In this document: one piece after another, positions 39,241 through 43,406 of the stretch
How positions within the stretch are numbered: the stretch's first letter is position 1
Layout of the letters: every line of letters starts with the position of its first letter
Origin: Stygiobacter sp. RIFOXYC2_FULL_38_25
GTDB taxonomy: Bacteria > Bacteroidota > Ignavibacteria > Ignavibacteriales > Melioribacteraceae
NCBI GenBank assembly: GCA_001803165.1
Contig: MHAZ01000006.1
Location: 311,428-375,427, forward strand
Direction: 5' to 3'
DNA: 64,000 nucleotides
Notes under the pieces: generated by a model
Seen by the model: the letters and a program-made list of their open reading frames with translations, nothing else
The model's database searches: none
Told to the model about the DNA's origin: nothing
Position numbers and translations under genes: made by a program

Positions 39241-39251
39241 AAAGGATGAAG

Positions 39252-42200
39252 ATGAATACCAATTTAGAAATTTTGCAAAATATATTACGCAAAAGAATTC
39301 TCGTCCTCGATGGCTCGATGGGCGTTTTTATACAGCGCTTCAAATTAAGCGAAGAACAATTCCGCGGCGAAAAATTTAAAAGCCATCCGGTTGATCTTAA
39401 AGGCAACAATGATATTCTTGTGCTGACACAGCCGGAAATCATAAAAGGAATTCACAGAAATTATTTGGAAGCCGGCTCTGATATAATTGAAACAAATACA
39501 TTCAATGGTACCGCAATTTCTCAAGCTGATTACAAAACCGAGCATATGGTTTACGAGATAAATTTTGAAGCGGCGAAAATCGCAAAGGAAGTTGCTGATG
39601 AATTCACAAAGCTGAATCCGGATAAGCCACGCTTTGTAGCCGGTTCGCTTGGTCCAACAAACAAAACTCTTTCAATCTCTCCCGATGTTAACGATCCCGG
39701 TTTCCGCTCGGTAAATTTTGATGAAGTTGCTGCGGCATTCAAAGAACAAGCCCGCGGATTGATAGATGGCGGCGCAGATATCCTTCTTGTTGAAACTATG
39801 ATTGATACGCTTGTTTGCAAAGCGGCTTTATTCGGAATTATGGAACTGTGCGAAGAAACCGGCAACAATATTCCGATAATGATTTCCGGTTCTGTGATTG
39901 ATATGAGCGGCAGAACATTGAGCGGACAAAACACCGAAGCATTCTGGAATTCGATTTCTCATACAAAAAATTTATTGAGTGTTGGATTAAACTGTTCTCT
40001 CGGACCGAAACAGATTCGCCCGTTTATAGAAGAGCTTTCAAAAATCGCCAATGTGTTTGTTTCACTATATCCAAATGCCGGATTGCCAAATGAGTTTGGC
40101 GGTTACGATGAATCACCAGAAGCGATGGCGAAAGTTTTGGATGAATTTGCCAAAGAAGGATTCTTCAACATAATTGGTGGCTGCTGCGGTACAACGCCAG
40201 ACCACATTAAAGCCTTTGCTGAAATTGCAAAGAAATATCCGCCAAGAAAAATTCCGGCGATTCAGCCTTACTTGCGTTTAAGCGGACTCGAGCCGCTCAC
40301 GCTTCGTCCCGAAACAAATTTTGTAAATATCGGCGAACGCACAAATGTAACCGGCTCAAAAAAGTTTGCGCGGCTCATCAAAGAAAATAAGTATGAAGAA
40401 GCTCTCTCCGTAGCGAGAGATCAAGTTGAAAACGGCGCTCAAGTTATTGATATAAACATGGATGAAGGCTTGATCAATTCCGAAGAAGCGATGACGAAGT
40501 TTTTGAATCTTCTTGCGACCGAACCGGACATTGCGCGGGTTCCAATAATGCTGGATTCATCAAAGTGGAGCGTTATTGAAGCTGGATTGAAATGTCTTCA
40601 AGGAAAAGGAATTGTTAATTCAATTTCGATGAAAGAAGGTGAAGATGTATTTAGACTTCACGCAAAGAAAGCATTGAAGTATGGTGCTGCTGTTATTGTA
40701 ATGGCTTTTGATGAACAAGGGCAAGCCGATACATTCGAACGCAAAACTCAAATATGCAAACGCGCGTACAAAATTTTAACCGAAGAAATCGGCTTTCCGC
40801 CGCAAGACATAATTTTTGATCCAAACATTTTTGCAATTGCAACCGGAATTGAAGAGCACAACCAGTATGCAATCAATTATATAGAAGCTGTCCGCTGGAT
40901 TAAAAAGAATTTGCCGCACGCCAAAATTAGCGGCGGCGTTAGTAATATCTCTTTTTCATTCCGTGGGAATGATACTGTCCGCGAAGCTATGCATTCCGCA
41001 TTTCTCTATCACGCAATAGAAGCTGGAATGGATATGGGAATTGTGAACGCCGGACAACTTGCAGTTTATGAAGCAATCCCAAAGGAGTTGTTAGAAAAAG
41101 TAGAAGATGTTTTATTGAACAGAAGGTCCGACGCAACCGAACGCTTGGTTGAATTTGCAAACACCCTGACAAAAGATGTTAAGCAAGATGTTGCAGATGC
41201 CGCATGGAGACATGAAAGTGTTGAAGAACGTTTGAAGCATGCGCTCGTTAAAGGAATTGTTGAGTTTATTGATGTGGACATTGAAGAAGCCCGGCAAAAA
41301 TATGTGCAGCCGCTTCAAGTAATTGAGGGACCGTTAATGTCCGCAATGAATGTTGTTGGAGATTTGTTTGGCTCGGGTAAAATGTTTTTGCCGCAAGTTG
41401 TAAAAAGTGCACGAGTGATGAAAAAAGCTGTGGCAATTTTAGAGCCGATAATAAAAGCCCCTCTCCCGCCCTCTCCCCAAAAGGGAGAGGTGGAATCTTC
41501 TGTACAAGATGAAAAGATTGGTTACAATCACTATGGTTGGCAAACAGCAGATCCAATTCTTTATGAAAAATTAAAAGAGTTTGCAGAACATAATAGGTTA
41601 AATCCGACTCCGGCAGAATTAATTCTTTGGGAACATCTTAAATCAAAACAGCTTGAGAATTATAAATTTAGAAGACAACATATAATCGGTCAATACATTG
41701 CTGATTTTGTTTGTTTGTCAGAAATGTTAATTATAGAAGTTGATGGAAGTATCCATCAGATTCCGGAAAACCAAGAACTCGATGAAATCAGAACACAGTG
41801 GCTTAACAAGCAAGGCTTTTCAGTTATTAGATTTCTTAATGATGAGATCATTAATGATCTTAAAAACGTTTTAGATAAAATTATACTTAAGCTAAAAGAG
41901 CATGATTCAAAATCTGCCCTCCCCTTTGGGGAGGGACGGGGTGGGGCTTCTGGTACTATTCTTTTGGCGACAGTTAAAGGCGATGTCCATGACATCGGTA
42001 AAAATATAGTCGGTGTTGTTCTCGGCTGTAACAACTATGATATTATTGATCTTGGCGTGATGGTTCCAAGCGATAAAATTCTTTCCACAGCAGTTGAAAA
42101 AAATGTGGACATAATTGGCCTCAGCGGATTGATAACTCCTTCACTTGATGAGATGGTTCACGTAGCTAAAGAAATGGAGAGAATGAATCTCAACATTCCT

Positions 42201-43406
42201 TTACTTATCGGCGGAGCCACAACTTCGCGAATTCATACAGCAGTAAAAATCGCACCGGAGTATTCCAAACCAACAATTCATGTGCTGGATGCTTCCAAGA
42301 GTGTTGGCGTTGTCAGCAATCTACTAAGCGAAGATGCCAAAGATGGTTTCGTTAACAAGATAAAAGATGAATACAAAAAGCTCCGTGAAGATCATTTCAA
42401 GAAACACTCGGAGAAGGAATATATTTCTATTGAGAAAGCCAGAGTCAATAAACTAAACTTGGACTGGGAAAGTTATTCTATTAAGAAGCCAAACAAACTT
42501 GGTGTTACCACTTTCAAAGAGTTTCCACTAAAGGAAATCCGCGCTTACATTGATTGGACACCGTTTTTCCAGACATGGGAATTGAAAGGAAAATACCCGG
42601 CAATTTTTGAAAACAAAGACTATGGAAGTGAAGCAAAGAAAATTTTTGATGATGCTAACAAACTGCTCGATCAAATTATTGAAGAGAAACTTTTAACGGC
42701 AAACGGAATTGTTGGCTTATTCCCCGCTGCATCAGTAGAAGATGATATTGAAATTTTTGCCGATGAATCCCGGAAAGGAATACTTGCTGAACTTCACACA
42801 ATACGTCAGCAGTCAATTAAATCGGAAAGGTTGCCGAACATTGCGCTTGCGGATTTCATCGCGCCTAAAGAATCAAATGTAAAAGATTACATCGGCATGT
42901 TTGCAGTTACAACTGGAATTGGAATTGAGAAAATGATTGAGAAGTTTGAAAAAGATCATGACGATTACAATTCAATAATGACGAAAGCAATTGCAGATAG
43001 ACTAGCGGAAGCATTCGCTGAATTGCTTCACGCAAAAGTGAGAAAAGAAATTTGGGGCTATGCCTCAGAAGAAAATTTGCCAAACGATAAATTGATTGCT
43101 GAAGAATACGCCGGCATTCGTCCTGCACCAGGTTATCCAGCTCAGCCAGATCATACAGAAAAATTAAAAATCTGGAAATTGCTGAATGTTGAAAGTGAGA
43201 CTTCAATTTCGTTAACGGAAAGCTTAGCAATGAATCCGGCGGCATCAGTTTGCGGTTTATATTTTGCTCATCCTCAATCAAAATATTTTACTGTTGGAAA
43301 AATCAGCAAAGACCAGGTTGAAGATTACCACAAGCGTAAAGGAATCAGTTTGAAGGAAGCCGAGAAATGGCTTCGCCCAATTTTGAATTATGATGAAAGT
43401 GAATAA
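39252..43406 (+). CDS. metH: Cobalamin-dependent methionine synthase with inserted DUF559 domain
   Basis: A 1384-residue B12-dependent methionine synthase. The ATG at 39252 is preferred to 39246 because AAAGGATGAAG is at the right distance. The order is a homocysteine domain (Cys in VGLNCSLGP and the [10 protein letters not shown] pair bind zinc), a folate domain ([13 protein letters not shown]), the B12 cap helices, the inserted DUF559 stretch (residues about 736-900), the B12-binding domain with axial His913 in DVHDIGKN, and the C-terminal SAM-activation domain ([29 protein letters not shown]). Enzymes without the insert are about 1230 residues, so the excess matches the inserted DNA. The stop overlaps the next ATG by one base. 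Confidence 0.95.
41470..41490. repeat. Left flanking palindrome of the metH insertion
   Basis: CCTCTCCC (41470-41477) and GGGAGAGG (41483-41490) form a perfect 8-bp stem around CAAAA. Codes PSPQKGE in frame. Confidence 0.8.
41917..41935. repeat. Right flanking palindrome of the metH insertion
   Basis: CCCTCCCC (41917-41924), TTT, GGGGAGGG (41928-41935) is a perfect 8-bp stem, followed by ACGGGGTGGGG. It has the same CCCTCC/GGAGGG theme as the elements at 1866-1882 and 5164-5180. Confidence 0.8.

What the first reader, a model, noticed from the sequence alone, without database searches (positions are those of the whole stretch)
41458..41952. Methionine synthase carries an in-frame DUF559 endonuclease domain in its B12 linker
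The metH frame runs unbroken through an extra roughly 165 residues that read as DUF559, with the PD-(D/E)XK-like D...IIEVDGSIH motif kept. They lie exactly between the B12 cap and the B12-binding domain, a linker that is short in ordinary MetH. The excess over a typical MetH (about 1230 residues) equals the insertion. A selfish nuclease ORF seems to have colonised an essential gene without splicing (no intein Cys/Ser or His-Asn ends are visible) and without breaking the protein.
Basis: partly seen in the sequence, partly recalled or inferred. Interest (0 to 1): 0.9.

Follow-up and report, generated by a model that had tools for sequence, protein, structure and literature searches.

The report
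Unspliced nuclease cassette inside methionine synthase
A small DNA-cutting domain bounded by DNA hairpins sits, apparently unspliced, in the middle of this bacterium's only recognised methionine synthase, and close relatives of the same cassette sit in frame inside at least a dozen other conserved proteins of related bacteria, which points to a mobile element that lives as a permanently translated domain.

Summary
The 1386-residue MetH (39246-43406, +) holds an extra 163 residues (41460-41948) between the B12 cap and the B12-binding domain. They contain a DUF559 domain (E 2.5e-33) with the fold of the homing endonuclease I-Bth0305I. It is not a chimera: in-frame metH-DUF559 genes occur at the same linker in other genomes, including cultured species, while most relatives lack it. 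(1) The insert is bounded by C/G-rich hairpins forming terminal inverted repeats, read through as disordered linkers; 79 of 95 related inserts have hairpins on both sides against 1.1% of synonymous recodings. (2) It is one of a family: the 80 best relatives fetched (of 539 or more) all lie in frame inside a long host frame, in 14 protein families and at three sites within MetH. Presence is scattered on the MetH tree. The nuclease is under purifying selection, and none of 13 carrier genomes has a MetE match. Best reading: a hairpin-bounded, homing-type nuclease cassette that persists unspliced in permissive linkers. Homing is inferred, not shown: insert trees do not reject descent with the host clades. 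No description was found in the searches made.

The parts
39246..43406 (+). metH, cobalamin-dependent methionine synthase, 1386 aa including the insert
   Evidence: ORF; PRK09490 and TIGR02082 equivalogs; Pfam domains
41220..41444 (+). MetH B12 cap domain (B12-binding_2, residues 659-733)
   Evidence: Pfam
41460..41948 (+). whole in-frame insert, residues 739-901 (163 aa)
   Evidence: insert-free relatives
41455..41490 (.). left terminal repeat: outer arm plus hairpin 41469-41490, translated [12 protein letters not shown]
   Evidence: inverted repeats I1 and I2; palindrome; family-wide
41568..41894 (+). DUF559 nuclease domain, residues 775-883; putative catalytic residues E791, D820, E831, D833, H837 (numbered from the invariant columns of A3; catalytic role inferred)
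   Evidence: Pfam; invariant columns; fold
41917..41949 (.). right terminal repeat: hairpin 41917-41935 plus outer arm, translated [11 protein letters not shown]
   Evidence: inverted repeats; palindrome; family-wide
41955..42221 (+). MetH B12-binding domain (residues 904-992)
   Evidence: Pfam

Best explanation
The segment is a mobile, hairpin-bounded nuclease cassette of the DUF559 / Vsr-like / EDxHD type that lives translated and unspliced inside its host protein. SHOWN: the domain order, the hairpin terminal repeats, in-frame residence of the 80 relatives fetched in 14 host protein families, scattered presence at one site on the MetH tree, purifying selection on the nuclease, the fold shared with a homing endonuclease, and no MetE match in 13 carriers. 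INFERRED: (1) the nuclease, made as part of MetH or released from it, cuts or nicks the insert-free allele in the linker between the conserved cap and B12 coding stretches, and the cassette is copied by recombinational repair from flanking homology; (2) the terminal palindromes are the element's DNA ends, and at the same time their Pro/Gly/Glu-rich translation gives the floppy linkers that let the nuclease fold outside the enzyme; (3) survival needs insertion in frame at a permissive loop of a gene that cannot be lost; (4) now and then a cassette lands in a new gene and founds a new site lineage.
For: In-frame DUF559 with intact MetH domains. Same-site metH-DUF559 in 5 of 39 genomes including the own one, 8 of 395 genomes drawn from the phylum including the own one, 1 of 2 genomes of one genus, and 5 of the 152 genomes with a match among 199 of family f30. 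80 of 80 fetched relatives lie in a long host frame, hosts named by Pfam; three sites within MetH. Hairpins on both sides: 65 of 76 elements, while 23 of 1520 control windows have one; 79 of 95 against 1.1% of 1900 synonymous recodings. Left and right ends of one element match better than ends of different elements: score at least 14 in 31 of 76, against 78 of 603 cross pairs and 2 of 304 random pairs. On the MetH tree 12 insert-bearing rows among 55 need 10 changes, about what shuffled labels need (mean 11.0); one gain would need 24 losses. Insert dN/dS 0.07-0.13 in the 5 pairs with insert dS under 0.6, and 0.04-0.12 in 6 more with high dS, of 21 pairs. Profile and fold relatives: NGO0050 (3hrl) and I-Bth0305I (3r3p). 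AlphaFold shows cap, disordered linker, nuclease, disordered linker, B12 domain. No MetE match in 13 of 13 carriers. Lower synonymous divergence in the insert than in the flanking host in 4 of 8 pairs.
Against: No cleavage, mobility or protein data. Insert trees do not reject descent with the two big host clades: AU p 0.63 for 32 Flavobacteriaceae-type rows and 0.81 for 11 Ignavibacteria-type rows, the held trees being even slightly better than the free ones; insert and host identities correlate (rho 0.50; the two host flanks with each other 0.74). The lower synonymous divergence is seen in 4 of 8 pairs only, and inserts have lower GC3 in several of those genomes, a possible bias. The insert-free linker is variable, so the recognition site is not obvious. 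Between the end of the cap and the nuclease core an in-frame ATG occurs in 29 of 57 site-A inserts, only GTG/TTG in 22, no start codon in 6 (a narrower stretch gave Met codons in 17 of 57), so separate internal translation is not excluded.
Confidence: 0.72

Rival explanations
1. The cassette moves as a palindromic (RPE/REP-like) transposable unit recognised through its hairpin ends, rather than by allelic homing; in-frame copies are simply the survivors.
For: Hairpins at both ends, also around stand-alone DUF559 genes (at least one side in 20 of 22, both in 10 of 22; control windows 19 of 440); many unrelated host sites; the only two places in the genome with one typed repeat piece flank the stand-alone DUF559 of C20.
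Against: 44 of the 80 fetched loci share one metH linker, which random transposition does not predict; no stand-alone member among the 80; no target-site duplication was established.
Confidence: 0.25
2. One ancient insertion in metH, inherited vertically and lost many times; no present mobility.
For: The insert tree is compatible with the big host clades; host and insert identities correlate.
Against: Needs 24 losses for 12 carriers in a 55-row sample; sister genomes with and without insert; several sites inside MetH and 13 other host families; nuclease residues kept under purifying selection.
Confidence: 0.12
3. A domesticated domain that benefits MetH or the cell, for example DNA-linked regulation, repair or defence.
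For: Purifying selection; a stand-alone DUF559 protein of Caulobacter, VsrA, causes the DNA damage response seen when a methyltransferase is removed (PMC12907096, passages read).
Against: Rare and scattered presence; same cassette in metabolically unrelated hosts; most relatives do without it.
Confidence: 0.06
4. A splicing element (intein or intron) of unrecognised type, so the mature MetH lacks the insert.
For: Tolerance in a catalytic enzyme would be easily explained; not testable from sequence.
Against: No Hint domain match, no intron family in Rfam; the insert sits in a variable linker, whereas inteins usually prefer conserved motifs (recalled); linkers predicted disordered.
Confidence: 0.05
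5. Assembly chimera or sequencing artefact.
For: None found.
Against: Same fusion in independent genomes, including cultured isolates such as Winogradskyella sediminis DSM 28134 and Salegentibacter holothuriorum DSM 23405. Reads were not available.
Confidence: 0.005

Closest known systems
ShiLan domain, a homing insertion in a phage DNA methylase with a hidden HNH endonuclease (PMC11855218; abstract and discussion read)
   Same: Insert without stop codons in the host frame, no sign of splicing, homing-like distribution, predicted to loop out of the host enzyme.
   Different: There the nuclease is HNH and out of frame, in a phage gene called non-essential by its authors. Here it is Vsr/DUF559-type, in frame, in cellular genes such as metH, metG and cinA, and bounded by DNA hairpins. 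The abstract and discussion read mention no palindromic ends.
Rickettsia palindromic elements (RPE), as described in the MITE review PMC10969869 (passages read)
   Same: Palindromic elements inserted in frame into many unrelated genes and kept as translated extra peptides.
   Different: RPEs are about 150 bp and are described there as encoding a conserved peptide; here a full nuclease of about 120 residues lies between the palindromes.
EDxHD / Vsr-like homing endonucleases, I-Bth0305I (PDB 3r3p)
   Same: Homologous fold and profile match; a 2022 paper assigns a DUF559 gene to this family (PMC9403480, passage read).
   Different: The solved chain is listed as a mobile intron protein; no self-splicing host element was found here.
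Stand-alone DUF559 proteins (NGO0050, PDB 3hrl; Caulobacter VsrA)
   Same: Same domain; stand-alone copies of this genome and its relatives mostly have hairpins nearby.
   Different: Free-standing genes; the 22 bacterial ones tested fall outside the in-frame group on the tree.
Inteins with homing endonucleases (recalled)
   Same: In-frame, scattered, same-site insertions in conserved genes.
   Different: No self-splicing domain matched; insert in a variable linker.

Membership tests
DUF559 (PF04480) | Match above the curated score | tested here: met
   114.7 bits against 20.6, model positions 2-108 of 109
EDxHD / Vsr-like homing endonuclease | Homologous catalytic fold | tested here: met
   3r3p: profile E 6.5e-5, Foldseek E 2.3e-4; Vsr itself only E 0.18
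EDxHD / Vsr-like homing endonuclease | Catalytic residues conserved | tested here: inconclusive
   E23, D52, E63, D65, H69 invariant in 46 inserts; their catalytic role is inferred from fold and recalled motifs
EDxHD / Vsr-like homing endonuclease | Site-specific DNA cleavage leading to copying of its own gene | not testable with these tools
   Distribution only
Intein | Self-splicing (Hint) domain | tested here: not met
   No Hint match in Pfam
Group I/II intron | Intron RNA structure | tested here: not met
   No Rfam intron match up to E 1
MITE / palindromic element | Terminal inverted repeats | tested here: met
MITE / palindromic element | Target-site duplication and many dispersed non-coding copies | tested here: inconclusive
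   No duplication established by eye; a 17-base repeat piece from L003 has only 2 copies in the genome, both beside a DUF559 gene; the metH repeat itself was searched only in the window and with one exact pattern genome-wide
Rickettsia palindromic element | Short palindromic element encoding a peptide, no nuclease | tested here: not met
   Insert encodes a nuclease domain; definition from passages read
MetH equivalog | Complete metH model match apart from the insert | tested here: met
   PRK09490 2094.8 bits, TIGR02082 1742.2 bits

The most novel reading that the evidence does not exclude
A separate class of mobile element: a translated, unspliced homing cassette. Its palindromic ends act as DNA ends and also encode disordered peptide linkers, so the parasite needs neither protein splicing nor RNA splicing, and it has specialised for residence in frame inside conserved proteins at many sites across Bacteroidota and Ignavibacteria-type bacteria.
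Probability: 0.5. Interest if true: 0.93.

Novelty: new variant of a known kind. Interest (0 to 1): 0.86.

Why it matters
Homing elements in protein genes are usually thought to need splicing to be tolerated. A family that instead carries its own flexible linkers and stays in the finished enzyme would be another solution, with consequences for how multidomain proteins gain domains, for annotation (MetH, MetG, CinA or TsaD carrying DUF559), and for protein engineering, since nature has marked permissive insertion loops in some 14 protein families. It is directly testable: the inserts are small, the hosts include cultured strains, and MetH function can be selected for.

Tried and rejected
Chimera: rejected by independent genomes. 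Intein or intron: no support. Transfer between Flavobacteriaceae-type and Cytophagales-type hosts looked likely from pairs such as L109/L112 and L115/L154, but the AU test does not reject one Flavobacteriaceae-type clade of inserts, so I do not claim it. An earlier AU test by split or full MetH gave p 0.0046 for inserts, but the label is not a host clade either (p 5e-43), so it was dropped. Viral or plasmid source: 2 distant relatives (35-40%) in viral contigs, 3 phage and 40 plasmid-collection records, all under 60% identity; no source found.

Scans redone: the first two hairpin scans used ill-placed windows (both sides 27 of 80 at score 18, control 42 of 800 single windows; both sides 60 of 80, control 23 of 1600) and were redone, which dropped 5 of 80 loci (L096, L123, L131, L163, L168) because my core motif was not found, and missed one of two cassettes in L116; one search uses the 95 profile-found domains and drops none of them. 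The MetH presence tree left out 4 duplicate loci and 9 loci whose linker did not fit my motif (L044, L047, L049, L052, L053, L057, L060, L061, L069), one of which, L069, carries the insert. Genome-wide pattern searches found nothing (the second with a wrong spacing). The linker lengths mixed two definitions and were recounted.

Literature: the searches listed no paper that I recognised as describing in-frame DUF559 cassettes; of the 14 papers naming DUF559 I read passages of two and saw the other twelve as listings. The I-Bth0305I paper and another looked up by DOI are not held, so prior mention there cannot be excluded.

Full report
OBSERVATION. The metH frame at 39246-43406 (+) is unbroken, 1386 aa. 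Pfam puts DUF559 at residues 775-883 (E 2.5e-33) between the cap (659-733) and the B12-binding domain (904-992). The extra material is residues 739-901, 41460-41948. Between KSARVMKKA and [11 protein letters not shown] insert-free MetHs have 24-30 residues (43 loci), insert-bearing ones 156-211 (57 loci).

HAIRPIN ENDS. The insert begins and ends with C/G-rich palindromes at 41469-41490 and 41917-41935, extended by outer arms that are 75-77% complementary to each other. They are translated as [12 protein letters not shown] and [11 protein letters not shown]. AlphaFold on residues 653-1053 (24 aligned sequences, mean pLDDT 78.6, pTM 0.45) shows cap helices, a linker under pLDDT 50 (model residues 87-117), the nuclease, a second such linker (236-248), and the B12 domain. 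The low pTM means the placement of the nuclease relative to MetH is not predicted.

RELATIVES AT THE SAME SITE. Of 39 genomes searched with the 401-residue region, 5 match through the whole insert: the own genome and four others at 65-73% identity. For most of the rest the best match covers only the part outside the insert; G002, G010 and G043 gave no strong MetH match, and the listing was cut. G055 has one more (L007). In a draw of 395 genomes of the phylum, 8 (own included) pass E 1e-100, and all 8 cover the insert. In the genus of G389 1 of 2 genomes has it. In family f30 (whose rows fall among named Flavobacteriaceae on the MetH tree) 5 of the 152 genomes with a match, out of 199, have it. 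On a tree of 55 MetHs (12 with insert, 43 without) presence needs 10 changes against a shuffled mean of 11.0 (123 of 500 shuffles as low); starred branches force at least 7, and a single gain would need 24 losses with midpoint rooting. Left out of that tree: 4 duplicates and 9 loci whose linker missed my motif, one of them (L069) a carrier. The insert-free rows are the best-scoring ones fetched, not a random draw.

THE FAMILY. All 80 lie inside a stop-to-stop frame of at least 487 aa, 8 of which run off a contig end; none is stand-alone. Hosts: MetH 52, MetG 9, adenine deaminase 3, CinA 3, GH2 2, acetyl-CoA synthetase 2, CoA transferase 2, and one each of urocanase, aldehyde dehydrogenase-MaoC, SpoIIE sensor, UvrA-like, MiaB-like, tryptophan dioxygenase and TsaD (gene names are my reading of the Pfam domains; 51 MetHs were called by sequence motifs and checked by BLAST to the window MetH). 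Within MetH there are three sites, numbered on the window MetH without insert: about 738 (44 loci), about 205 (L098, L158 and a second cassette in L102) and about 1048 (6 loci). L102 and L116 carry two cassettes each. More distant in-frame DUF559s lie in HsdR (L004, L006, L008), a DNA methylase (L030) and a host without Pfam match (L018). Record titles name Bacteroidota or Ignavibacteria-type organisms in 78 of 80; L120 is titled Candidatus Saccharibacteria and L138 Streptomyces griseus, both metagenome assemblies, possibly misbinned (not tested). Cultured carriers include Winogradskyella, Salegentibacter, Christiangramia, Flavobacterium, Marivirga and Nubsella.

DNA-LEVEL MAINTENANCE OF THE ENDS. 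Pyrimidine/purine hairpins flank 65 of 76 elements on both sides (left 72, right 69), while 23 of 1520 control windows have one. With profile-found domains 79 of 95 have both (left 89, right 84), against 1.1% of 1900 synonymous recodings that keep the peptide (8.7% left, 8.6% right); so the palindromes are not a by-product of the Pro/Gly peptide. The two ends of one element match each other better (score at least 14 in 31 of 76) than ends of different elements (78 of 603); relatedness was not removed from that comparison. Stand-alone DUF559 genes of the own genome and relatives have at least one such hairpin within 200 bases in 20 of 22 cases, both in 10, control 19 of 440 windows. In the window's genome a 17-base piece of the repeat beside the stand-alone gene on C20 occurs twice (up to 1 mismatch), on its two sides.

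NUCLEASE. In 46 inserts 19 columns are invariant, among them E23, R42, H44, D52, E63, D65 and H69. The model (pLDDT 91.2, pTM 0.84) matches NGO0050 (3hrl, E 1.3e-9) and I-Bth0305I (3r3p, E 2.3e-4); only these entries pass E 0.001. Next come mitoribosomal proteins of Toxoplasma and Tetrahymena (E 0.003-0.06), then AbaSI (0.13) and Vsr (0.18). The profile search gives 3hrl (1.5e-28), 3r3p (6.5e-5) and, weakly, PvuRts1I (0.03). Of 21 pairs, 10 are saturated; insert dN/dS is 0.07-0.13 in the 5 with insert dS under 0.6 and 0.04-0.12 in the other 6; MetH flanks give 0.01-0.14 where computable.

TREE. 124 domains, 122 columns, quick search: a starred branch (SH-aLRT 96) joins 94 in-frame inserts from many hosts; the 22 bacterial stand-alone copies and the HsdR and methylase inserts fall outside it; one metH insert (L102, site B) and one viral copy (L177) sit just outside. 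Host labels need 27 changes, minimum 19, shuffled mean 63. So lineages tend to keep to a host gene but switch at times; most forks are poorly resolved. Against transfer between big clades: AU tests do not reject one insert clade for Flavobacteriaceae-type hosts (p 0.63) or for Ignavibacteria-type hosts (p 0.81). For recent exchange: synonymous differences are fewer in the insert than in host flanks in 4 of 8 pairs (p 0.0001-0.005), borderline in 1 (p 0.09), not in 3, with lower GC3 of some inserts as a possible bias.

HOST FUNCTION. MetE (PF08267) has no match in 15 of 15 genomes, 13 of them carriers; the control rings in 10 of 14 known genomes. MetH is thus the only recognised methionine synthase in the carriers, and its frame is intact. 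This favours an active fusion but does not prove it.

COMPARISON. The closest described cases I found are the ShiLan domain (PMC11855218, abstract and discussion), where the nuclease is out of frame in a phage gene, and Rickettsia palindromic elements (PMC10969869, passages), described as encoding a conserved peptide. A DUF559 gene has been assigned to the EDxHD homing family (PMC9403480, passage). The mechanism proposed, homing without splicing with palindromes doubling as linkers, is inference from anatomy and distribution.

Noticed in passing
L008, ORF residues 251-317 and 443-547: A type I restriction HsdR carries in frame both a GIY-YIG nuclease domain and a DUF559 domain, so other nuclease types may use the same lifestyle.
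   Followed up: partly
L129, ORF residues about 1206-1445: A 1644-aa MetH with the DUF559 insert has a second in-frame insert of about 240 aa in the activation domain, without a Pfam match and without hairpins obvious by eye.
   Followed up: partly
L072:1441-1590: An insert-free metH linker whose DNA is a palindrome (GCCCCCCA ... TGGGGGAGC) resembling joined cassette ends, possibly a scar.
   Followed up: no
L030 (minus strand), around the DUF559: The DNA methylase frame carries several more PLTPLKEGN-type repeats in frame.
   Followed up: no
L003 and L178/L179 (G000:C20 48565-49177): The stand-alone DUF559 of the same genome lies between two copies of a longer palindromic repeat in the same orientation.
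   Followed up: partly
L116, two DUF559 domains of one ORF (the second at residues 651-757): Acetyl-CoA synthetase with two DUF559 cassettes of quite different sequence at two sites.
   Followed up: partly
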